64,000 nucleotides of DNA from Hippasteria phrygiana (Eukaryota; Echinodermata; Asteroidea; Valvatida; Goniasteridae): assembly GCA_037893225.1 (NCBI GenBank), contig JAZGUH010000084.1:744001-808000 (forward strand), read 5' to 3'. Under the pieces are notes generated by a model. The model was not told where the DNA came from. It searched no databases and was given only the letters and a program-made list of their open reading frames with translations. The position numbers and the translations under genes were made by a program. Below are positions 24,830 to 47,810 of the stretch, one piece after another. Positions within the stretch are counted from its first letter, which is position 1. Each line of letters opens with the position of its first letter.

Positions 24830-25060
24830 AAAAAATTGGGTGTGATCTCTGGCTACACGGCATTCTGGGTTTATGACTTCTGACTAGCGCCCACCCGAAC
24901 AAAGATACTGACAATTTGGGAGACCGCCAACATAGGGCAAGATAGCTCAGTTGGTAGAGCGCCAGTACGGTGTTCCGGAGGTCGCAGGTTCGAATCCTGC
25001 TCCTGCCAGTTTCTTTGTTCAGTTTGAAAATGTATTGTTGGATTTTGTTTGAATTTAGCA
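24830..25060 (+). repeat. tRNA-like dispersed repeat (SINE), copy 1
   Basis: A tRNA-like segment (24936-25008) has the A-box TAGCTCAGTTGGT and B-box GGTTCGAATCC, a good T arm and a near-complete acceptor stem, but a poor anticodon arm. The flanks (TGGCTACACGGCATTCTGGG upstream, TTTCTTTGTTCA downstream) recur with it at 47309-47525, so the unit is a repeat, not a gene. Confidence 0.75.
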
Positions 25061-35455: not shown

Positions 35456-36368
35456 GCATTGATACGCGCGCGTTAGTTATCCCGAATGACCCATGACCCA
35501 TGTTATTGTGCACATCATGCGCAGTTGAAATACCGTACTGGCTTATTAGAAGCATCCTGTTCCTGATTCTAGATTTGGAACTTTTTACTTCAGGGCAGGG
35601 GCCATGTGTTTGTGCAATATCCCATTGGAAGGCTTATAACTTAGGTATCTAATGGTAAAAAATTTACCATATAATTTGAAAATTTAGTAAATTCGCAGTG
35701 CCACTCCCCAAAAGGCAGGGACACAGCATCTTTAACCCTAACGTCCTAGGCATTAATTTGGTTTGAATACCTACAAAATACTACTTAGTATTCTGCTGCA
35801 TTGAGTATCTCTGTCTTTGGGTGCGTTCGAGTAGCTCACCCGGGTCGACTCGGGTTAGCCCCGTGCCCTTCGATTAGGTCTGACGTCATACCCGGGGCTC
35901 ACTCGGGTCAGCTACCACAGACCCTGCTCGTGGAGCAGAGTCACTGGTGTAATTACGTCACACGCGTGCGTAGTTAAGTCTGACTACCCACAGATTCTAC
36001 TGGAGCGGGGAATTAAAAATGGCTGACCTCAAGAGCGATTGTGTAGTTAAGGACTGTTTCTATATGAGAACAAAATCCACTTTTAAGTTATTGGACTCGG
36101 CAAACTACAAATGTTGATTGCGACATTAAAAACCAACAGGTACATGTATGTCATAGATAGAGGGCAGAGTTTTACATTTTTTGTGGGAAATTTTTTGGTA
36201 AAACGACAACGAAGATGACAAAATGCAACACGAAAATAAAGATGGCGAAGACCGCACTGATTCGCAAGACACGAACTGCAAAACACGTAAGAAAATTTCA
36301 TTTTTTTTCCGGCAGGAAACTTTTCAGAATTACAAAAAATGATGTCATTAGAATTGAGAGGAGTATAC

Positions 36369-36719
36369 TGTAGCGCCAGTGCCGGTCGGTTGGCGGAGGG
36401 CGCTAGCACGGCACCACTAGCGGAACCGTTGCGGTGGAGCCCCAGCTGACCGGCCGGTAGAGGGCACCAGCACGGTCCCACAGCGGAGCTGTTGCAACGG
36501 AGCCCCTGCTGGTCGGCTGGGGAGGCCCGTTGCGTGCGGCGCACGCGCGGTGACCCATTTCCCTAGTAACAAGCATTGTGCGATCCTCCACCATTTTGTG
36601 TGAGGCCTTGTGTATTTTGCTACCCGAATAAACGGCCTAGAGCCCTTCAGAACTTGAGCAAAGTGTGCCGGAGTGTTCTTTCAGGGTGTACGAGAGTCCC
36701 GCGCACGGTCGACGCTACA
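36369..36719 (+). repeat. Gypsy 5' LTR
   Basis: TG..CA-bounded, 351 bp. Polyadenylation-type AATAAA at 36627-36632. It differs from the 3' LTR at GCCAGTGCC/GCCGGTGCC, GACCCATTT/GACCCGTTT and CTACCCGAATAA/CTACCTGAATAA. No clear TATA box. Confidence 0.95.
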
Positions 36720-36739
36720 TTGGAGGCAGCGGTGACATA
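36720..36739 (+). promoter_or_regulatory. Candidate primer-binding site
   Basis: TTGGAGGCAGCGGTGACA follows the 5' LTR directly; TGG would pair with the CCA end of a tRNA. I cannot say which tRNA. Confidence 0.5.
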
Positions 36740-36755
36740 CCAGGAAAGAGCAAAT

Positions 36756-36764
36756 CAGGTAAAA
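36756..36764 (+). promoter_or_regulatory. Candidate 5' splice site in the Gypsy leader
   Basis: CAG/GTAAAA, with GT at 36759-36760, 22 bp before the gag start codon. It is the right place for a donor that removes gag-pol to make a subgenomic mRNA. Confidence 0.5.
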
Positions 36765-36781
36765 CCTCAAGTTCTTGCGGC

Positions 36782-39700
36782 ATGAATCCACCGGGTAGGG
36801 ACAGTCTGGTGTCCGACTCGCCACACGGCGCGGACACAGACGGGGATATAGCTCCACACGACGCAGGCCAATCGGGAGATAGGAATGGCGGACCGTTCGT
36901 TACCTTGAGCGAATTAGAATCCTTTTTGAGGGATAATCAAGGGAGTCTTCCTCGGGATAAGAGGGAGACTGGGGGGTCATCGGGATCGGAATCTCTCATG
37001 TGGGAGGACGGGGAGAAAATGAAGCCTGAGATGATAGATCAGGGGGGGCGAATTTGTTACATTCCATGTCGCATTTGCATCGATTCCCCCCAGACTAGTT
37101 ATGAGTCCCTCAGTGGGCCGTCCCACGCCGCTGGCGTCGGGGTGACAGATGCTCCGTTCCACCCGGAACGTTGCCGAGTCGCACTGGCCGGTGTGGCGGG
37201 GACGGTGCTTCACTGTGGGACAACCCATGACCCTTATTCCGGCGTGTCGAACGCCGGACCCCGCGAGGGGCCGCCCGGTGCTGCGCACGGCGACGGCGCA
37301 GACGCTGCGTTCCACACGGAACGCCGCCGAGCCGCGTTCGCTGGGGCAGCGGGGGCGGAGCCTCGTGTGGAGACGGCCTGTGAGTTTCACGCCGGTGCGC
37401 CCGGCGGGGGGTCTCGCGGGGGGCCGCCCTGCGCTGTGCACGGCGGCGGGGCAAACGCCGCGTTCCACACGGAACGCCGCCGAGCCGCGTTCGCCGGGGC
37501 GGCGGGGGCGGAGCCTCGTTTGGGAACGGCCTGTGAGTTTCACACCGGTGCGCCCGATGGGGGGCCTCGCGGGGGGCCGCCCTGCGCCGTACACGGCGGC
37601 GAGGCAAACGCTGCGTTCCACTCGGAACGCCGTCGGGCCGCGTTCGCGGGGGCGGAGCCTTGCATGGAGGGGGCCTTTGGGTTTTGCACCAGTACGCCCA
37701 GCGGGGGACACCGGGAGGGACCACGCCGTGCTGGGTATGGCGGCGGGGCGGATACGCCGCTCCACACGGAGCGTGGTCACGCCGCGTCTGCCGACGCAGC
37801 GGGGGGTCGTCCAGAGACACCCCACATTTTCTACACCGGCGTGAGCACCGGGAGCCACGAGGAACTGACCACCAGGGCAGGCCCTGGCGCAACGGGGATT
37901 CCCCAACCTACACGCCCCATGACGGTAACAGTAGAGCCCCCTCAACGGTACCGGTGTGGCCAGCCACTCCGCGTGGGAGTCAATGGAGAGCCACTCCGCG
38001 TGGGAGTCAATGGAGAGCCACTCCGCGTGGGAGTCAATGGAGAGCCACTCCGCGTGGGAGTCAATGGAGAGCCACTCCGCGTGGGAGTCTATGGAGGAGA
38101 GCCACTCCGCGTGGGAGTCAATGGCGTGGAGCCACTCCGCGTGGGAGTCTATGGGGGAGAGCCACTCCGCGTGGGAGTCAATGGAGAGCCACTCCGCGTG
38201 GGAGTCTATGGGGGAGAGCCACTCCGCGTGGGAGTCAATGGAGAACCACTCCGCGTGGGAGTCAATGGAGAGCCACTCCGCGTGGGAGTCAATGGAGAGC
38301 CACTCCGCGTGGGAGTCTATGGGGGAGAGCCACTCCGCGTGGGAGTCAATGGCGTAGAACCACTCTGCGTGGGAGTCAATGGAGAGCCACTCCGCGTGGG
38401 AGTCAATGGAGAGCCACTCCGCGTGGGAGTCAATGGCGTGGAGCCACTCCGCGTGGGAGTCTATGGGGGAGAGCCACTCCGCGTGGGAGTCAATGGAGAG
38501 CCACTCCGCGTGGGAGTCAATGGGGAACCACTCCGCGTGGGAGTCAATGGAGAGCCACTCCGCGTGGGAGTCAATGGCGCAGAACCACTCCGCGTGGGAG
38601 TCAATGGAGAGCCACTCCGCGTGGGAGTCAATGGCGCGGAGCCACTCCGCGTGGGAGTCTATGGAGGAGAGCCACTCCGCGTGGGAGTCAATGGCGCGGA
38701 GGCAATCCGCACGGGAGTCTATGGAGGAGAACCACTCCGCGTGGAAGTCAATGGAGTGAGACAGCCCAGTCGGGAGGGGAGACCCGGGATCGCGGGGTGG
38801 CACCACACGGAGCCCCCATGCGGGACCGAGGCACCATCCACCACCAAGGGGGCACAGACTACCCCTGGCACATGCGGTGCCGCCGGACGAGCGGGGGACA
38901 TGCCAACACCACCACCCGGGATGAGAAGGGGGACAGCGGGACCTTCCGACCCGGGGGGTCGGAGGCCAATGATGTTTCCCGACAGGTTCGACGGAGGCTC
39001 GTCGTGGTCCGATTACCTGATCCACTTCGAGAGCGTCGCGGCAGTCAACCATTGGAGCGAGGCCGAGAAGGCGATGTTCCTGGCTTCTCATTTGAGGGGC
39101 ACGGCCCAAGAGGCACTTGCGGATATGGCGCCGGAGGGGCGAACGGAATATGCCTCCATCCTCGAGACCTTCGAACAACGGTTCGGGGTGGCTGCCCAGA
39201 TCCCCTTACACCGGGCGCAGTTGTCGATGCGCTTGAGAGGCCGCGACGAGTCACTCGGCAGCTTGGGACAGTCGATTCGAAGACTAATTTACAAGAGCTA
39301 CCCGAAGCTGCCCACGCAGGCCCGCGAAGATCTGGCGGTGGAGGCGTTTCGCAACGCCCTGGGGAACGAACAGCTGCAACGCCACATCTTCTCTAGGAGG
39401 GCGGCAACTCTGACCGAGGCAGTCGCCCTTGCGGCCGAGATGGAGGCCTTCCTCGAGGCACAGGCGCGCCAGAAGGGGAGGTCAGGGACCAAGGACGTCC
39501 GGCTAGTAACTCAGCCCCCAGCCGAGGAGCCCGGGCCTGCCGCCGGGACTGGGGATGTGCAGGCCGCCCGCCCCCGGGTGGAGTGCTACGGATGCCACGA
39601 GTTCGGGCACATACGACGGTACTGCCCCAAGCGGAAGTCTGCTTCCGACCGGCAGCGAGGACCGACGGGGACAACGCCGAGACGCCAGGCCCCAAGCGGA

Positions 39701-42700
39701 GAGCCGGCGGCTCCAGCCCGAGTGACCAGTGCGAACTACATCACGGGCAAGGTCGCCGGGATATCCGTGCGCCTCCTCCTTGATACCGGGGCGGCGGTAA
39801 GCTTGTTGTCCGAGAGGGTCTATGGCACCTTGGATGAGACGGAGAGGCCGAGACTCCTTCGTTCCGCGCCGGCCCTGAGAATGGCAGACGGGAGCTCCAT
39901 GCCAGCGAGGGGGGTGGCCGACTTCAAACTGCAGGTCGGGGGTCAACTTCTGAACCACGCCTGTACGGTGGCCGATATAGAGCCAGACGTGATACTCGGG
40001 ATCGACTTCCTGTCAAGATACCGTTGCGAATGGCGATGGGGGGATGGCGTAGTCGTGGTCGACGGGGAGGCCGTTCCCCTGGAGGGTTCCCGACGGCGGC
40101 CGATGGTGGCCAGGGTACAGGTGATGGAGAATATGGTGGTACCGGCAGGTCACGAGGCGATTATCGCGGGCGGAGTGGCTGCTGGGCCACGGATGGGAGT
40201 CGGGATGGTGTACCCGAACTTGGGGGCCACGGACAGTTGTCAGATTGCGGTCGCCACGGGCCTGGTCGATACTGGGAATGGGACCGTGCCGATCCGAGTG
40301 TTCAACCCGACGACCGACCCCGTCACCGTTTACAAAGGGAGTCGCCTGGCTTTATTTTCGCCAATGGACGACTTTGACGTGATGGAACTTGGCGACGGAC
40401 GGCCGAGAACGGCTACCGGGCATTCTTTTTCCCCCCCAGCGAGTGTCCGAACGGAAGTGCCGGCTCATCTCGGAGACCTCTTGGACCGGGGCGCGGTGAA
40501 CCTCGGTCCGGCCGAGCATGCCCGGTTGGCAGAATTGCTGACGGAGTTCTCGGAAGCGTTCACGGGCCCGGACGGCAAGCTCGGTCGGACGAACCTGGCC
40601 CAGCATGCGATCGACACCGGAGCAGCCAACCACATACGCCAGCCGCCAAGGAGACTACCCATGCACAAGCGGCGGGAGGCAGAGAAGCAAGTTGAACAGA
40701 TGTTGCAGGAGGGTGTTGTGGAGCCGTCCAATAGTCCTTGGTCGTCACTGGTCGTCCTTGTAAGAAAAAAGGACGGTTCCATTCGATTTTGCGTGGACTA
40801 TCGCAAGGTCAACGAGGTGACGCTGAAGGACGCGTACCCCATCCCCCGAATCGAGGACAACTTGGACGCCCTGGACGGGGCGAAGTGGTTCAGCACACTC
40901 GACCTAGCCAGCGGATACTGGCAGGTCGGCCTGGACAAGGGGGACCGAGAGAAGACGGCCTTCGGCATGCAGAACGGCTTGTACCAATTTACAGTAATGC
41001 CATTCGGGCTCTGCAACGCTCCAGCGACATTCGAACGGCTAATGGAGCGGGTGCTGAGGGGACTTCAGTGGCAGATAGCGGTGGTCTATCTGGACGACGT
41101 GATCGTGTGGGGGTCCGACTTCGAGGAACACTATCAGAGGCTGGCCACCGTGTTGGGCCGGTTCCGGGCCACGGGGTTGAAGCTGAAACCAAAAAAATGC
41201 GATCTGTTCAAGACGGAAGTGTCCTTCCTGGGCCACAAGGTTTCAGCCGAAGGGGTGAGCACAGACCCCGAAAAAGTCACCGTCATCAGGAAGTGGCCAC
41301 AGCCGGCAAACCTGACCCAAGTCCGGAGCTTCCTGGGCCTCGCGTCGTACTACCGACGTTTCATCGCAGACTTCGCCGAGATCGCTCGTCCCCTCCACGC
41401 CCTTACCAACAAGAGTCAGAAGACCTTTGCCTGGTCCAGCTCCTGTCAGTCGGCCTTTGAGCACCTCAAGGACGCGCTGGCTACGACGCCGGTGTTACGG
41501 TACCCGAACACGGAGCGTCGCTACATCCTGGACACGGACGCCAGCCACTGCACCATTGGAGCGGTGTTGTCACAGGAAGGGGATGATGGGGAAAGGGTGA
41601 TTGCCTACGGCAGCCGCGCCTTGTCCAAGGCCGAGCGCAACTACTGCACCACACGGAGAGAGTTGCTGGCCGCGGTCCACTTCATCCATTATTTCAAACA
41701 TTACCTCCTGGGCAAGCGTTTCCTGCTCAGAACGGACCACAGCTCCTTACGGTGGCTATTCAACTTCCGCGAACCCGAAGGACAGGTGGCCAGATGGATC
41801 CAAAGGCTGGGGTGTTACGAATTTGACATCGAGCACCGAGCAGGCAAGAAACACATCAACGCCGACGCCGTCTCCAGGATCCCGTGTGGCCAGTGCGGAC
41901 GGTCAAGAGAGCAGGGCCAGGAATGCTACACCGGGGAGGGCCAGAGTAGTACCGGGGAGGCACAAGTGGACGGACTGGTGGGAGCTGTCGGCGAGTCCGG
42001 ACGGAAACGGGCCACTGCCTCAGAACAACTCCTGGAGACATGGGACCCCGAGGAACTGGCGCGGGAGCAACGCAGCGACCCCGAACTGGGCAAGCTCATG
42101 CAGTGGCTGGAGGAGGCGGTCCCCCGACCCGGCTGGACGGATGTCTCGGCGCTGGACGAGGGTACCAAGTTCTGGTGGGCCAAGTGGCAAAGGCTACGGC
42201 TGGCCCGTGGGGTCCTACAGCTAAGATGGGAACAGCCCGGCGGGGGACCCCCGACGTGGAAGGTCGTGGTCCCAAAGGGGAAGGTGGAGGACGTCATGAG
42301 GTTGGTCCATGACAACAGAACCTCGGGCCACTTGGGGGTCGCCCGGACGGTCGCACGACTGAAGCAGGCCTCCGTGTACTGGAGAGGGATGCAACGCCAG
42401 GCGGAAGAGTGGTGTCGGAAGTGCCACAAGTGTGGCTCGAAGAAGTCGCCTCCCAGACCCCGGAAGGCCCCACTCCAACAATACTTAGTAGGGGCCCCGA
42501 TGGAGCGCCTGGCAATTGACCTGACGGGCAGACTTCCGAAGACGAGGGCCGGGAACACGGGCATCATGGTGGTCGCTGACTACTTCACGAAGTGGGTGGA
42601 GGCCTTTCCCATCCCCGACAAAACGTCAGAAACCGTCGCCAGGGTCCTCGTCGAACAGGTTGTCACGCGGTTCGGCACCCCCCTAGAAATCCATACGGAT

Positions 42701-44374
42701 CAGGGGAGGGAGTTCGAAGCCGGACTGTTCCAGGGAGTCTGTAGGCTGCTCGGCATTCAAAAGACCCGTACTACGCCGTTCCACCCCCAGTCAGACGGGA
42801 TGGTGGAGCGGTTTAACCGCACGGTCAAGACGATGCTGAGCCTGTTCGTCGACGAGAACCAGGACGACTGGGACGAACACCTGCCGTATGTCATGATGGC
42901 GTACCGTTCCTCTCAACACGACAGCACCAAACTCACGCCGAACCTGCTCATGCTCGGCCGGGAAGTCAGGCTCCCCCTGGACCTCGTGGTGGGGCTCCCG
43001 GAAGAGCGATCGGCACGCGTGGTAGTACCCGACTACGTGGATGGGCTGAGGAGGAAGATGGAGCGTGCCCACGAGTTCGCCCGGCGTCACCTACAGAGCA
43101 GCCAGACCTACCAGAAACGACAGTACGACCGTCGGGCCGAAGGGGCTGGGTATGAGCTAGGCCAACCGGTGTGGCTGTACACCCCCGCCAAGAAAGTGGG
43201 TCGCACGCCCAAGCTGCAGTGTTGGTGGGACGGACCGTTCGTGGTGACGAAGAGAATGGACGACGTCACTTACCGGGTCCAGAAGTCCCCTCGAGCTAAA
43301 GCCAAGGTGATCCATTACAACCGGCTGAAACCATACCTGGGCGACGCCGATGTGGGCTGGTGGGAGCGTACCACTCGGGGATCTCGGGCGGAAGAAGGCA
43401 GTACCACCACGGAGGGACCGCCGGGGACACCGGACCGATCGGGGGTCCCATTAGCGGACCCGGCGAACGAAGCTGCCCCGGACGACCAGGCGAACAGCGG
43501 GGAAGGTCAAGACCCCGGGATGGCCCCGACTCCCTACGGGGAGGGGACACCACCACCGGCCGAGATGACGGCGACGACCCCCGACGAGCCGAGCGGGACG
43601 GAACCGGAGTCCGGCGAAGTGGCCGGCGAGGCGGCGGGGGAAGGCGAGCCGGCACCTCCTACGCCATCGGAACCGGCTACCGGCAGAGTCACTAGGGCCG
43701 GACGGAGAATTATCCGTCCCAGTCGATATTGCCTCCACCTAACTGACCTTCCTTCTTTTCCCCCCTGCAGGATGGATCAGGTGAGATGTCCCCACTGCGA
43801 CAGGACGTTCAACCAGCGCCATAATCTCCGGAGGCACCTCCGGACGGCGTGCAGGGTACTCCACCCCGAATGTCCCTACGCTTGTGCCCGGGGGTGCGGA
43901 AGGACCTTCTATAGGAGGGACGTCCGGGAGCGACATCACCACTATTGTGCGGGGAGTTTTGTGGGATCGGTGGGTGCGGAGGTCGACGAACTCGACGTCC
44001 ACGCCAGCGACGAGGAGATGGACGCCGCTCCACCCCCTCCGCCGCCGACGTCCCACCGGGGGAGCCGTAACCACCCGGAACAGCCCCCCCACGCTACCAC
44101 ACCACGCGCGGGGCGGTCGCCCTCACCGCCACGCCTCACTCGGCAAGGGAGTCACCAGGTCCCGGAGTCTCCCAGCCGGTCGGGGGACCGCGGCCCCTCG
44201 GAACGCTTCTCCCGACCACCCCATTCGGAACATTCCTCGGAGGGACGACCATCTGGGTCGGGGAGCCGTGTCCGTGCGGAACGCTCCCCGGCGGGGCCCC
44301 CCCACGAGGCCGTTGGAACCGGCGCCGGGGCGGGAGGGGTCGACCGGTCCGAGCGGAGGGCGGGGTGCCGATGA
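36782..44374 (+). CDS. Gypsy gag-pol polyprotein with C-terminal zinc-finger extension
   Basis: The first in-frame ATG after the LTR is at 36782, giving 2,530 residues without a stop or frameshift. In order: five degenerate repeats of about 50 residues (about 123-372); 28 units of EPLRVGVNG (394-658); a gag capsid-like region (about 730-895); a CCHC knuckle from Cys935; aspartic protease with DTGA at 1001; reverse transcriptase with YLDD at 1436-1439; RNase H with the DTDAS motif (first Asp 1584); integrase HHCC (His1843, His1850, Cys1881, Cys1884) and the D1913-D1973-E2009 catalytic triad with D-x35-E spacing; and a GPF module near 2150. A Pro/Glu/Gly-rich linker then leads to two C2HC fingers (2336-2389) and a low-complexity tail. 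Gag and pol share one frame, so pol needs no frameshift. All catalytic motifs inspected are intact. Confidence 0.95.
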   Translation: MNPPGRDSLVSDSPHGADTDGDIAPHDAGQSGDRNGGPFVTLSELESFLRDNQGSLPRDKRETGGSSGSESLMWEDGEKMKPEMIDQGGRICYIPCRICIDSPQTSYESLSGPSHAAGVGVTDAPFHPERCRVALAGVAGTVLHCGTTHDPYSGVSNAGPREGPPGAAHGDGADAAFHTERRRAAFAGAAGAEPRVETACEFHAGAPGGGSRGGPPCAVHGGGANAAFHTERRRAAFAGAAGAEPRLGTACEFHTGAPDGGPRGGPPCAVHGGEANAAFHSERRRAAFAGAEPCMEGAFGFCTSTPSGGHREGPRRAGYGGGADTPLHTERGHAASADAAGGRPETPHIFYTGVSTGSHEELTTRAGPGATGIPQPTRPMTVTVEPPQRYRCGQPLRVGVNGEPLRVGVNGEPLRVGVNGEPLRVGVNGEPLRVGVYGGEPLRVGVNGVEPLRVGVYGGEPLRVGVNGEPLRVGVYGGEPLRVGVNGEPLRVGVNGEPLRVGVNGEPLRVGVYGGEPLRVGVNGVEPLCVGVNGEPLRVGVNGEPLRVGVNGVEPLRVGVYGGEPLRVGVNGEPLRVGVNGEPLRVGVNGEPLRVGVNGAEPLRVGVNGEPLRVGVNGAEPLRVGVYGGEPLRVGVNGAEAIRTGVYGGEPLRVEVNGVRQPSREGRPGIAGWHHTEPPCGTEAPSTTKGAQTTPGTCGAAGRAGDMPTPPPGMRRGTAGPSDPGGRRPMMFPDRFDGGSSWSDYLIHFESVAAVNHWSEAEKAMFLASHLRGTAQEALADMAPEGRTEYASILETFEQRFGVAAQIPLHRAQLSMRLRGRDESLGSLGQSIRRLIYKSYPKLPTQAREDLAVEAFRNALGNEQLQRHIFSRRAATLTEAVALAAEMEAFLEAQARQKGRSGTKDVRLVTQPPAEEPGPAAGTGDVQAARPRVECYGCHEFGHIRRYCPKRKSASDRQRGPTGTTPRRQAPSGEPAAPARVTSANYITGKVAGISVRLLLDTGAAVSLLSERVYGTLDETERPRLLRSAPALRMADGSSMPARGVADFKLQVGGQLLNHACTVADIEPDVILGIDFLSRYRCEWRWGDGVVVVDGEAVPLEGSRRRPMVARVQVMENMVVPAGHEAIIAGGVAAGPRMGVGMVYPNLGATDSCQIAVATGLVDTGNGTVPIRVFNPTTDPVTVYKGSRLALFSPMDDFDVMELGDGRPRTATGHSFSPPASVRTEVPAHLGDLLDRGAVNLGPAEHARLAELLTEFSEAFTGPDGKLGRTNLAQHAIDTGAANHIRQPPRRLPMHKRREAEKQVEQMLQEGVVEPSNSPWSSLVVLVRKKDGSIRFCVDYRKVNEVTLKDAYPIPRIEDNLDALDGAKWFSTLDLASGYWQVGLDKGDREKTAFGMQNGLYQFTVMPFGLCNAPATFERLMERVLRGLQWQIAVVYLDDVIVWGSDFEEHYQRLATVLGRFRATGLKLKPKKCDLFKTEVSFLGHKVSAEGVSTDPEKVTVIRKWPQPANLTQVRSFLGLASYYRRFIADFAEIARPLHALTNKSQKTFAWSSSCQSAFEHLKDALATTPVLRYPNTERRYILDTDASHCTIGAVLSQEGDDGERVIAYGSRALSKAERNYCTTRRELLAAVHFIHYFKHYLLGKRFLLRTDHSSLRWLFNFREPEGQVARWIQRLGCYEFDIEHRAGKKHINADAVSRIPCGQCGRSREQGQECYTGEGQSSTGEAQVDGLVGAVGESGRKRATASEQLLETWDPEELAREQRSDPELGKLMQWLEEAVPRPGWTDVSALDEGTKFWWAKWQRLRLARGVLQLRWEQPGGGPPTWKVVVPKGKVEDVMRLVHDNRTSGHLGVARTVARLKQASVYWRGMQRQAEEWCRKCHKCGSKKSPPRPRKAPLQQYLVGAPMERLAIDLTGRLPKTRAGNTGIMVVADYFTKWVEAFPIPDKTSETVARVLVEQVVTRFGTPLEIHTDQGREFEAGLFQGVCRLLGIQKTRTTPFHPQSDGMVERFNRTVKTMLSLFVDENQDDWDEHLPYVMMAYRSSQHDSTKLTPNLLMLGREVRLPLDLVVGLPEERSARVVVPDYVDGLRRKMERAHEFARRHLQSSQTYQKRQYDRRAEGAGYELGQPVWLYTPAKKVGRTPKLQCWWDGPFVVTKRMDDVTYRVQKSPRAKAKVIHYNRLKPYLGDADVGWWERTTRGSRAEEGSTTTEGPPGTPDRSGVPLADPANEAAPDDQANSGEGQDPGMAPTPYGEGTPPPAEMTATTPDEPSGTEPESGEVAGEAAGEGEPAPPTPSEPATGRVTRAGRRIIRPSRYCLHLTDLPSFPPCRMDQVRCPHCDRTFNQRHNLRRHLRTACRVLHPECPYACARGCGRTFYRRDVRERHHHYCAGSFVGSVGAEVDELDVHASDEEMDAAPPPPPPTSHRGSRNHPEQPPHATTPRAGRSPSPPRLTRQGSHQVPESPSRSGDRGPSERFSRPPHSEHSSEGRPSGSGSRVRAERSPAGPPHEAVGTGAGAGGVDRSERRAGCR
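37149..37900 (+). repeat. Five diverged about 150-bp coding repeats in gag N-terminus
   Basis: Each unit encodes a block like AAFHTERRRAAFAGAAGAEP followed by a Gly/Pro-rich stretch. Units 2 and 3 are nearly identical; 1, 4 and 5 are diverged. GC-rich; antisense frames are open by composition. Confidence 0.85.
37961..38757 (+). repeat. 28-unit coding minisatellite (27/30 bp) in gag
   Basis: The unit is GAGCCACTCCGCGTGGGAGT plus CAATGG or CTATGGGG, 27 or 30 bp. All length changes are multiples of three, so the frame is kept. A few units vary (LCVG, EAIRTG, RVEV). No stop appears in several other frames over most of the tract. Confidence 0.95.
43747..43771 (+). promoter_or_regulatory. Candidate 3' splice site before the zinc-finger segment
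   Basis: A pyrimidine tract of about 18 bases (CCTTCCTTCTTTTCCCCCC) runs into TGCAG/G, with AG at 43769-43770 and an ATG two bases later (43772). A CTAAC-like branch site lies at about 43738-43743 (CCTAACTG). This is a near-ideal animal acceptor inside an otherwise GC-rich frame. Confidence 0.6.
43772..44374 (+). CDS. Candidate spliced ORF3: double C2HC zinc-finger protein (overlaps the pol 3' end in frame)
   Basis: If the subgenomic mRNA exists, translation from the ATG at 43772 gives 200 residues, identical to the C-terminus of the polyprotein. Finger 1 is C-x2-C-x12-H-x4-C (CPHC..RTFNQRHNLRRH..C) and finger 2 is C-x3-C-x12-H-x3-C (CARGC..RTFYRRDVRERH..C). The remainder is an acidic patch, a poly-Pro run and Ser/Arg/Pro-rich low complexity. 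It could bind nucleic acid; nothing resembles an envelope protein and I see no signal peptide or membrane segment. Its presence as a separate product is inferred only from the splice-site pair. Confidence 0.55.
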   Translation: MDQVRCPHCDRTFNQRHNLRRHLRTACRVLHPECPYACARGCGRTFYRRDVRERHHHYCAGSFVGSVGAEVDELDVHASDEEMDAAPPPPPPTSHRGSRNHPEQPPHATTPRAGRSPSPPRLTRQGSHQVPESPSRSGDRGPSERFSRPPHSEHSSEGRPSGSGSRVRAERSPAGPPHEAVGTGAGAGGVDRSERRAGCR

Positions 44375-44862
44375 GACCCTCTGCGCCCCCCGATGCCCCC
44401 TTGCCACAGTGGGACGGACGCCCTCTTCTTCTTCCGGCCGGTACCAGCGTGCACTTCCCGGACGGGAGACGACTCCAGCTGAGCAGAGCCGCGGCCGTCC
44501 GGACGCCTAGCATCACACTGGACTCCGCCACCCACATGGAAACGGCCCTCTGCGAACACCTCAGGGAGGAGTGGCGGTTAGAGCACACGCCCCACGGGGT
44601 GGATGCCCGTGGCCACCGGCTGGGGCGGAGACGAGTGATCCATACCTACGAGGCCCCCGTCCACCTTCTCCAGACGTACCAGGGGCAGCAGTATGGCCAA
44701 TACTTCGTAGATCCCTCCGTGTCCGCCCAGCCCTCTCTGGGGGGACTGCTACCACCCGGAGCGCCGCCACCCCCGCGCTACCCCAACAACGTACCACGTC
44801 GCTTCTGGGAGGAACTGTTCCGGCAGACGGAAGTCCAACGGCAGCCTCCACCTACCAGCTGA
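44371..44862 (+). CDS. Gypsy ORF4, unknown protein, ATGA overlap with the upstream frame
   Basis: ATG at 44371 overlaps the TGA at 44372-44374 that ends the preceding frame, in the arrangement used for termination-reinitiation. It encodes 163 residues and stops at 44860-44862. Visible features: a Pro-rich N-terminus, an LCEHLREEWRLEH helix-like stretch, a YQGQQYGQYF aromatic/Gln segment, and a Pro-rich segment before FWEELFRQ. No signal peptide, membrane segment or known domain is recognised. The open frame inside a young element with matching composition suggests it is real. Confidence 0.6.
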   Translation: MRPSAPPDAPLPQWDGRPLLLPAGTSVHFPDGRRLQLSRAAAVRTPSITLDSATHMETALCEHLREEWRLEHTPHGVDARGHRLGRRRVIHTYEAPVHLLQTYQGQQYGQYFVDPSVSAQPSLGGLLPPGAPPPPRYPNNVPRRFWEELFRQTEVQRQPPPTS

Positions 44863-45026
44863 ACTGGATGTTGTTTTCCCTTCCCCCCCTGGACTTTTGT
44901 GTAACCCCCTTTTTTTTTTTTTTTTTTGTGTTTTGGTGGTCACTGCGGGCGCCGTCCGGCTCGGGCCTTCCTGGGCGTCCGGTCATCGGTGCTGGTTGTC
45001 TTGTTCGGGGACGAACAAAGGTCTTC

Positions 45027-45037
45027 GCGGGGGGCAA
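45027..45037 (+). promoter_or_regulatory. Polypurine tract
   Basis: GCGGGGGGCAA directly before the 3' LTR, the expected position of the plus-strand primer. A T18-type run at about 44911-44928 precedes it by 100 bp. Confidence 0.6.
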
Positions 45038-45388
45038 TGTAGCGCCGGTGCCGGTCGGTTGGCGGAGGGCGCTAGCACGGCACCACTAGCGGAACCGTTG
45101 CGGTGGAGCCCCAGCTGACCGGCCGGTAGAGGGCACCAGCACGGTCCCACAGCGGAGCTGTTGCAACGGAGCCCCTGCTGGTCGGCTGGGGAGGCCCGTT
45201 GCGTGCGGCGCACGCGCGGTGACCCGTTTCCCTAGTAACAAGCATTGTGCGATCCTCCACCATTTTGTGTGAGGCCTTGTGTATTTTGCTACCTGAATAA
45301 ACGGCCTAGAGCCCTTCAGAACTTGAGCAAAGTGTGCCGGAGTGTTCTTTCAGGGTGTACGAGAGTCCCGCGCACGGTCGACGCTACA
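45038..45388 (+). repeat. Gypsy 3' LTR
   Basis: 351 bp, TGTAGCG..GCTACA, followed by the ATAC target duplication. About 99% identical to the 5' LTR. Confidence 0.95.
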
Positions 45389-45627
45389 ATACTTTAGGTT
45401 GATAAATTCATTTTGGAATACTAAAAACAACCTTGACTCGAAATGGATCAAATATAAAGAGGTGTCCGTAAACTACACAATCCCGGACCCTTATTCCTCC
45501 ATGGCCGATTCAAGTGCAAGGTGACATCAACAGGAGAGGGCGTTTGAGCGTTCTATTAGCCCAGCTCTCGCGGCTGACCCGTCTGCCTTCACCCGAGTCG
45601 ATCCGGGTAAGCTACTCGAATGCACCC

Positions 45628-47194: not shown

Positions 47195-47525
47195 ATCCTT
47201 AAATCCCGCTCCTGCCAGTTTTCTTTGTTCACTTTGAAAATGTATTCAAATTTACCTAGTCAATTTCCCTTGTGGTTTGTCGCTTCCCAGGTTGTATTGT
47301 AAAATTAGGTGCGATCCCTGGCTATACGGCATTCTGGGTTTATGACTTCTGACTAGCACCCAGCGAACAAAGATACTGACAATTTGGAAGACCACCAACA
47401 TAGGGCAATCTAGATAGCTCAGTTGATAGAGCACTGGTACGGTATTCCGGAGGTTGAAGGTCCGAATCCCGCTCCTGCAAGTTTTCTTTGTTCACTTTGA
47501 AAATGTATTTAAATTTACCTAGTCA
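47195..47525 (+). repeat. tRNA-like dispersed repeat (SINE), copies 2 and partial 3
   Basis: A 3' fragment at 47202-47270 (CCGCTCCTGCCAGTTTTCTTT) is followed by a fuller copy at 47309-47525 with TAGCTCAGTTGATAGAGC and GGTCCGAATCCC, a degraded B box. It shares the upstream TGGCTATACGGCATTCTGGG with copy 1 at 24.85 kb. Confidence 0.75.
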
Positions 47526-47810
47526 GTTTCGCTTGTGGTTTGTAAAATTTAGATTTGCTCGAGTGACTTTTTGAATGTGACAGATAATACTGCAGTAATA
47601 AAAGCATTATTTTTGTAATCTTAATTTTCTATTGAAATGTGTAGGCCTACTTAATTAATCTTGATGACTAACTTGAGGTTAACTGACAAAGTACATGTTT
47701 CTCTGTTGTAACAGTTTCTCTGTTGTCCGATTGCCCAGGGCAATAACAAATTCTGTCCGGCAACCAAAAGTTTAGTCAACCATCTAAATTTCAAAATTTC
47801 CGAAAGTAAA

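What the first reader, a model, noticed from the sequence alone, without database searches (positions are those of the whole stretch)
43738..44862. Gypsy element with a spliced-style zinc-finger ORF3 and an ATGA-coupled unknown ORF4 behind integrase
Seen: after integrase the frame continues into two C2HC fingers. A near-ideal branch/pyrimidine/AG acceptor (AG at 43769-43770) is followed at once by an ATG (43772), and a CAG/GTAAAA donor lies just before the gag ATG (GT at 36759-36760). The zinc-finger frame then ends in a TGA overlapping the ATG of a 163-codon frame. Known: some Ty3/Gypsy elements make env from a spliced mRNA at this position. Inferred: here the env slot is taken by a non-envelope zinc-finger protein plus a novel second protein, perhaps made by reinitiation.
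Basis: partly seen in the sequence, partly recalled or inferred. Interest (0 to 1): 0.86.

Follow-up and report, generated by a model that had tools for sequence, protein, structure and literature searches.

The report
Retrotransposon with zinc-finger accessory protein
A young Ty3/Gypsy jumping element in an animal genome, probably that of a sea star or its kin, carries a conserved zinc-finger protein where retroviruses carry their envelope gene, with conserved splice signals in front of it; the 'second protein' behind it is really the tail of that same protein, cut off by a frameshift in this copy.

Summary
Every coordinate in the finding checks out, and the splice acceptor is the strongest in the element. 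Comparison with 79 other loci of the same genome changes the reading. ORF3 and 'ORF4' are one protein: two C2HC fingers, a loose Pro/Arg/Ser-rich linker and a conserved C-terminal domain of about 160 residues with no Pfam or PDB match. The window copy has a frameshift in the homopolymer-rich linker. The ORF4 'start' is a threonine codon in the six copies of other subfamilies where it aligns clearly, and the ATGA overlap is seen in 4 of 30 close copies. Both halves are under purifying selection (dN/dS mostly 0.1-0.3). The acceptor is conserved as RNA signal: 37 of 45 bases but only 8 of 15 amino acids agree between subfamilies A and C. The leader donor GT is kept in 19 of 20 leaders. Splicing itself could not be observed, and no processed spliced copy was found. 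Best reading: an accessory protein made both as the end of a gag-pol polyprotein and alone from a spliced mRNA, working like CERV of Cer1, without shown homology. New variant of a known kind.

The parts
36369..36719 (+). 5' LTR (TGTAGCG...CGCTACA)
36365..36368 (.). target-site duplication, left copy (ATAC)
36721..36736 (+). primer-binding site, TGGAGGCAGCGGTGAC; the primer tRNA is not settled (inconclusive)
36752..36765 (+). putative splice donor AAATCAG|GTAAAAC in the leader, 5' of the gag ATG
36783..39727 (+). gag, with a long array of 27/30-nt repeats and a CCHC knuckle
   Evidence: frame and knuckle read
39728..40108 (+). aspartic protease (PF13975)
40508..41599 (+). reverse transcriptase and start of RNase H (PF00078, PF17919)
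41900..43420 (+). integrase (PF17921, PF00665, PF22938)
43727..43771 (+). putative splice acceptor island: branch-like CTAAC, pyrimidine tract, TGCAG|G
43772..44374 (+). ORF3 as read in this copy (200 codons): two zinc fingers plus most of the linker
43787..43852 (+). zinc finger 1, CX2CX12HX4C
   Evidence: read; PF00096; strand-strand-helix model at pLDDT about 75
43883..43948 (+). zinc finger 2, CX3CX12HX3C
   Evidence: read
44042..44370 (+). Pro/Arg/Ser/Gly-rich linker with homopolymer tracts whose length varies between copies; this sets the frame between ORF3 and ORF4
44371..44862 (+). 'ORF4': conserved C-terminal domain of the ORF3/4 protein, out of frame with ORF3 in this copy
45038..45388 (+). 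3' LTR
45389..45392 (.). target-site duplication, right copy (ATAC)

Best explanation
The window holds a young Ty3/Gypsy retrotransposon whose pol is followed by an accessory gene, ORF3/4, coding for one protein of about 360 residues (455-584 in subfamily C): two C2HC fingers at the N-terminus, a disordered linker, and a conserved C-terminal domain of unknown fold. It is made in two ways. Unspliced RNA gives it as the C-terminal piece of one gag-pol-ORF3/4 polyprotein. A spliced mRNA, leader donor 36758|36759 to acceptor 43770|43771, gives it alone from its own ATG. Shown: architecture, selection on both halves, single frame in many copies, conserved donor and acceptor sequences. Inferred: that splicing occurs, and the function. 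The most likely function is a nucleic-acid-binding regulator of the element's own unspliced RNA (retention, export or packaging), like CERV in Cer1. In the window copy a frameshift in the linker has separated the two halves.
For: At least 150 ORF3 and 154 ORF4 matches lie in the same genome. In 10 copies both matches carry the same open frame of over 2,700 residues, two of these with only part of the ORF4 match. dN/dS against the window copy is 0.11-0.29 for the fingers in 9 of 11 comparisons, dS being saturated in the other two. For the ORF4 domain it is 0.20-0.26 in 7 of 12; the rest are one decayed copy at 0.54, the near-identical L007 at 1.05 and three saturated. TGCAG|G is kept in 57 of 58 loci in which the end of pol precedes the ORF3 start, and ATG in 52 of 58. 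A against C: 37 of 45 bases and 8 of 15 residues agree in the acceptor island, while 48 windows of equal length in the finger region reach at most 30 of 45. GT is kept at the leader donor in 19 of 20 leaders, AG|GT in 17 of 20; the one C-type leader read has CAG|GTATTT at the same spacing from the primer-binding site (L119). A Patiria miniata protein record starts at the Met of ORF3 and ends with the ORF4 tail (52% over 147 aa, 82% over 62 aa).
Against: No RNA data were available. A genome-wide search for the predicted exon junction gave 5 matches with 2-3 mismatches against 3 for the reversed control. None of 76 ORF3 copies with a listed primer-binding site upstream lies within 2 kb of it. 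So no processed spliced copy is seen. In 6 of 58 loci the ORF3 ATG is lost while the acceptor stays. One diverged copy, L071, keeps only 25 of 45 bases of the island, though TGCAG|G and the pyrimidine tract remain. The donor is only the third best GT in the element. Function rests on analogy.
Confidence: 0.6

Rival explanations
1. Polyprotein only: ORF3/4 is simply a C-terminal extension of pol (an integrase-linked nucleic-acid-binding or targeting module) and the acceptor-like stretch is a pyrimidine-rich coding accident.
For: ORF3 is in frame with pol, and the frame through the join is open in many copies of several subfamilies. Six of 58 loci have lost the ATG. No processed spliced copy was found.
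Against: Nucleotide conservation of the island between A and C exceeds what its amino acids need. It sits directly before an ATG kept in 52 of 58 loci. Donor and acceptor are both kept, and no ATG lies between 36600 and the donor.
Confidence: 0.25
2. One reading: ORF4 is a separate protein, translated by reinitiation at the ATGA overlap.
For: The ATGA overlap and the open 163-codon frame are real in the window, and the ORF4 frame is under purifying selection.
Against: The overlap is seen in 4 of 30 subfamily A loci. The ATG is a Thr codon in six copies of other subfamilies. In 18 of 43 loci with a long ORF4 match the two are one open frame through the whole match, including 3 of 5 C loci. The frame classes need several changes on a tree of near-identical copies, but that tree is weakly resolved and a single origin of each class is not excluded.
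Confidence: 0.05
3. Env-like protein: a divergent envelope or fusion protein in the env slot.
For: Position after pol and a spliced-message layout like the gypsy errantivirus (PMC4276936, passages seen).
Against: No transmembrane-like stretch: highest 19-residue mean 0.6 (ORF3), 0.39 (ORF4), 0.92 (C-type L061); zinc fingers instead.
Confidence: 0.02
4. Passenger or decaying sequence without function, carried along by recent copying.
For: Many copies carry stops or frameshifts.
Against: dN/dS of about 0.1-0.3 between subfamilies in both halves and conservation of both ends in Patiria.
Confidence: 0.04

Closest known systems
CERV of Cer1 (C. elegans Ty3/Gypsy element; PMC10309623: abstract, introduction and passages seen)
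   Same: Non-envelope protein in the env slot of a Ty3/Gypsy element; made from a spliced mRNA; no stop between gag and pol; a cysteine-rich loop suggested to be an RNA-binding zinc finger; acceptor sequences conserved among Caenorhabditis species.
   Different: CERV comes from a 5-exon mRNA and shares exons with gag; its possible finger is C4-type; its function (nuclear export of unspliced RNA) was tested. Here the fingers are C2HC, one intron is predicted, and nothing has been tested. The sequences were not compared.
gypsy errantivirus env (Drosophila; PMC4276936, passages seen)
   Different: Env is a membrane fusion glycoprotein; ORF3/4 has no membrane-like segment.
ORF3 proteins of bdelloid rotifer LTR retrotransposons (PMC5408684: abstract and section 3.3 seen)
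   Same: Non-envelope genes in the env slot of animal LTR elements.
   Different: Those are GDSL esterases and DEDDy exonucleases.
sORF2 of the MDG1 group (Drosophila; PMC11952523, passages seen)
   Same: Accessory gene of LTR retrotransposons without Env.
   Different: Short transmembrane protein like a viral fusogen; upstream of gag in most cases described, downstream of pol in some Lepidoptera.
Additional 3' sense ORFs of plant LTR elements (PMC7264820, passages seen)
   Same: Extra sense ORF between pol and 3' LTR; splicing reported for barley Bagy2.
   Different: Plant elements, env-like or unknown products; the word zinc does not occur in that paper's main text.

Membership tests
Ty3/Gypsy (Metaviridae) LTR retrotransposon | two LTRs with TG...CA ends and a 4-6 bp target duplication | tested here: met
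   351-bp LTRs, 3 differences, ATAC duplication
Ty3/Gypsy (Metaviridae) LTR retrotransposon | order gag-PR-RT-RH-IN | tested here: met
   for PR, RT, RH and IN; gag by position and its CCHC knuckle (read), Pfam giving only a sub-threshold DUF1759 match
Ty3/Gypsy (Metaviridae) LTR retrotransposon | tRNA primer-binding site next to the 5' LTR | tested here: inconclusive
   a conserved TGGAGGCAGCGGTGAC follows the LTR, but the tRNA-like sequence in the window matches only its first bases
Ty3/Gypsy (Metaviridae) LTR retrotransposon | RT phylogeny and clade | not tested
   no reference set of clades was at hand
Errantivirus (env-bearing gypsy) | third ORF is an envelope glycoprotein with membrane segment | tested here: not met
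   hydropathy; zinc fingers
Errantivirus (env-bearing gypsy) | third ORF expressed from a spliced mRNA | not testable with these tools
   signals present; no RNA data
CERV / Cer1 accessory protein | sequence homology to CERV | not tested
   the CERV sequence was not fetched; the paper reports no obvious homology outside Caenorhabditis or nematodes
CERV / Cer1 accessory protein | required for export of unspliced genomic RNA | not testable with these tools
   function inferred by analogy only
classical C2H2-type zinc finger (PF00096) | score above the curated cut-off and ordered zinc ligands | tested here: met
   29.7 bits against 25.2; last ligand is Cys in both fingers, so a C2HC variant

The most novel reading that the evidence does not exclude
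ORF3/4 is an independently evolved analogue of retroviral Rev and of CERV: a zinc-finger protein from a spliced message that binds the element's own unspliced RNA and lets it leave the nucleus, so that the single-frame gag-pol RNA escapes splicing. Its C-terminal domain of about 160 residues would be a new fold or effector domain, and splicing plus in-frame fusion would give the same protein both inside particles and in the nucleus.
Probability: 0.22. Interest if true: 0.7.

Novelty: new variant of a known kind. Interest (0 to 1): 0.45.

Why it matters
Accessory proteins in the env slot of Ty3/Gypsy elements are known, but few have been studied. A conserved zinc-finger protein with its own splice signals, in an abundant and young family of what is probably an echinoderm, would be a second test case beside Cer1 for how retrotransposons with introns in their genome handle splicing and export. 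The family also shows how a reader of one copy can mistake a frameshift for a two-gene arrangement.

Tried and rejected
1) Processed spliced origin of the B-type elements. In 19 of 80 loci ORF3 is joined to a short piece of pol exactly at the acceptor AG (mapped in L045), which looked like a record of splicing. Related copies with the same upstream piece show no GT there and share the bases AGGA with the acceptor side, so a short-homology deletion explains it better. I dropped this as evidence for splicing.

2) Direct search for the spliced junction in the genome: chance level. 3) Homologues in protein databases: ORF4 alone, none of 377 candidates; ORF3, one of 1351; a third search could not be made. 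Viral contigs: 4 pattern matches, none a relative. 4) ORF4 fold: single-sequence model at pLDDT 37.5, meaningless; no PDB match at E 1 for the alignment and no Pfam match better than E 0.3; no fold search was run. The ORF3 model shows only finger 1 with some confidence. 5) Late-domain motifs (PPRY, PSAP; labels recalled) in ORF4: absent from C-type L061, so no claim. 6) Primer tRNA: not settled. 7) Linker dN/dS about 0.4-0.6 in frame 0 for three of five comparisons; the other two (0.54, 0.89) align too poorly to trust.
Full report
What is there. The window carries a Ty3/Gypsy element from 36369 to 45388: 351-bp LTRs with 3 differences, a 4-bp target duplication, and PR, RT-RH and IN matches in order. 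One frame is open from 36641 to 44374. The best GT, at 43781, lies inside ORF3.

The host. The only database relative found is a protein of the sea star Patiria miniata, so the host is probably an echinoderm; this is an inference.

Copies. The genome holds at least 150 ORF3 and 154 ORF4 matches (lower bounds, since only the best candidates are scored, and one copy can give two matches). I read 80 loci, the window's own copy included. The first 20 are the tool's best matches; the other 60 were picked from the match lists for diversity. They were sorted by the sequence before ORF3: 30 subfamily A (like the window), 10 A', 19 B, 5 C, 16 other.

ORF3 and ORF4 are one protein. Of the 80 loci, 43 have a long ORF4 match (27 A, 7 A', 5 C, 4 other; two of the last lack the ORF3 start, so their frame is extrapolated). 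In 23 of 43 the two frames agree, in 10 ORF4 is shifted one way and in 10 the other. In 18 loci (13 A, 2 A', 3 C) the frame is open from the ORF3 ATG through the whole ORF4 match. Two more A loci are open, one with a changed end and one with an internal deletion; the remaining three of the 23 are stopped earlier. In the three open C loci the protein is 455-584 residues. The ATGA arrangement occurs in 4 of 30 A loci. The differences lie in homopolymer tracts of the linker. On a tree of the A copies the frame classes need several changes and are, one by one, not more clustered than shuffled labels (76, 181 and 113 of 500 shuffles as low); all groups with the outgroup together are more clustered (9 changes against a shuffled mean of 12). 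The tree is weakly resolved, the tracts were not cut out of it, and a single origin of each class is not excluded. The ORF4 ATG is a Thr codon in L025, L028, L032, L033, L036 and L055, and no Met aligns there in L029, L068 or the C loci. The window copy is therefore a frameshifted member; a homopolymer error of the assembly cannot be excluded. In 10 copies the ORF3 and ORF4 matches carry the same open frame of over 2,700 residues, long enough to start in gag (two of the ten have only part of the ORF4 match).

Selection. Against the window copy the finger region has dN/dS 0.11-0.29 in 9 of 11 comparisons; dS is saturated in the other two, both C. The ORF4 domain has 0.20-0.26 in 7 of 12 comparisons, 0.54 in one decayed copy, 1.05 in one near-identical copy with almost no changes, and saturation in three C copies. 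The linker is weakly constrained, about 0.4-0.6 in three usable comparisons. Patiria conserves both ends: 52% over 147 aa and 82% over the last 62 aa. The middle of that record looks like another reading frame; this was judged by eye only.

Splice signals. TGCAG|G before the start is kept in 57 of 58 loci in which the end of pol precedes the ORF3 start; in one (L055) the AG has moved by one base. Excluded from this count are 19 B loci, two without an ORF3 start and L068. ATG is kept in 52 of 58. Between A and C the 45 bases before ATG agree at 37 positions although only 8 of 15 amino acids agree, the same in all five C loci; 48 windows of the same length in the finger region reach at most 30 of 45 (A against L061). 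Against this, L071 agrees with A at only 25 of 45 bases, though it keeps TGCAG|G and 21 pyrimidines of 27. In the alignment of A with L061 the island is 83% identical while the pol tail before it, the fingers after it and the ORF4 domain are 54-57%; in closer subfamilies (L025, L028) the island is no better conserved than its surroundings; the alignment of L063 was out of register at the island. The leader donor was seen in 6 of 6 readable leaders (4 further loci gave no motif match and were not read). In 20 leaders, the window's included, GT is kept in 19 and AG|GT in 17. The one C-type leader read has CAG|GTATTT at the same spacing from the primer-binding site (L119). No ATG lies between 36600 and the donor; the transcription start is not known.

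What speaks against splicing. No RNA was available. The predicted junction is not found in the genome above chance (5 matches with 2-3 mismatches, control 3), and of 76 ORF3 copies with a listed primer-binding site upstream none is closer than 2 kb (100 of 204 primer-binding sites and 105 of 150 ORF3 places were used). B-type joins at the acceptor are better explained by short-homology deletion.

Mechanism. The evidence fits a protein expressed twice, as polyprotein tail and from a spliced message. C2HC fingers next to a basic, Pro/Ser-rich linker suggest nucleic-acid binding. The closest worked-out case is CERV of Cer1, a spliced, non-envelope protein in the same slot with a suspected zinc finger, needed for export of unspliced RNA (PMC10309623: abstract, introduction, passages). 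I take regulation of the element's own RNA as the most likely function, by analogy only. An integrase-linked targeting role is the main alternative.

Literature. Eight paper searches were answered. From the listed titles and starts of abstracts I saw no element with a C2HC or C2H2 finger protein in the env slot; the lists are capped, and most subscription papers and Repbase are not searchable here, so this is weak evidence of absence. Non-envelope ORF3 genes are known from bdelloid rotifers (PMC5408684: abstract, section 3.3), spliced env from gypsy (PMC4276936, passages), extra ORFs from plants (PMC7264820, passages) and sORF2 from MDG1 elements (PMC11952523, passages). The Troyka lineage, present in sea urchins, was checked (PMC12440569, passages): no envelope, and only a gag finger of another kind is mentioned.

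Verdict. Observation confirmed, interpretation half right: a real zinc-finger accessory gene with conserved splice signals, but one protein, not two.

Noticed in passing
L035, L038, L043-L051, L053, L056-L058, L075-L077, L080: B-type non-autonomous elements: gag joined to the zinc fingers, with PR, RT, IN and most of the ORF4 domain gone (mapped in L045; the others share the join, and lack a long ORF4 match). Of three 5' parts read, LTR plus N-terminal gag are 97%, 95% and 86% like the window; in L045 the middle is 81-82% and the 3' end 99%. Apparently mosaics with the A type.
   Followed up: partly
37931-38724: Long array of 27/30-nt repeats in gag coding a nonapeptide like GEPLRVGVN, in frame.
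   Followed up: no
L068 (C719), around oriented position 495: Element sequence begins almost exactly at the acceptor (TGCAG|GATGG) with DNA unlike the element before it, then a 431-codon ORF3 frame and an LTR; truncation or a captured exon.
   Followed up: no
G000 contig C202 5088930, 5107619, 5126347: Three ORF3 copies at regular spacing of 18.7 kb, a tandem duplication that includes an element.
   Followed up: no
24936-25008; 47202-47280; 47465-47543: A tRNA-Thr-like sequence whose 3' end resembles the start of a repeat at 47202 and 47465: probably a tRNA-derived SINE.
   Followed up: no
43778-43786: CAG|GTGAGA inside ORF3 codons 3-5 is the best donor-like site of the element; copies whose protein reads MDQA (such as L016) cannot have this GT.
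   Followed up: no
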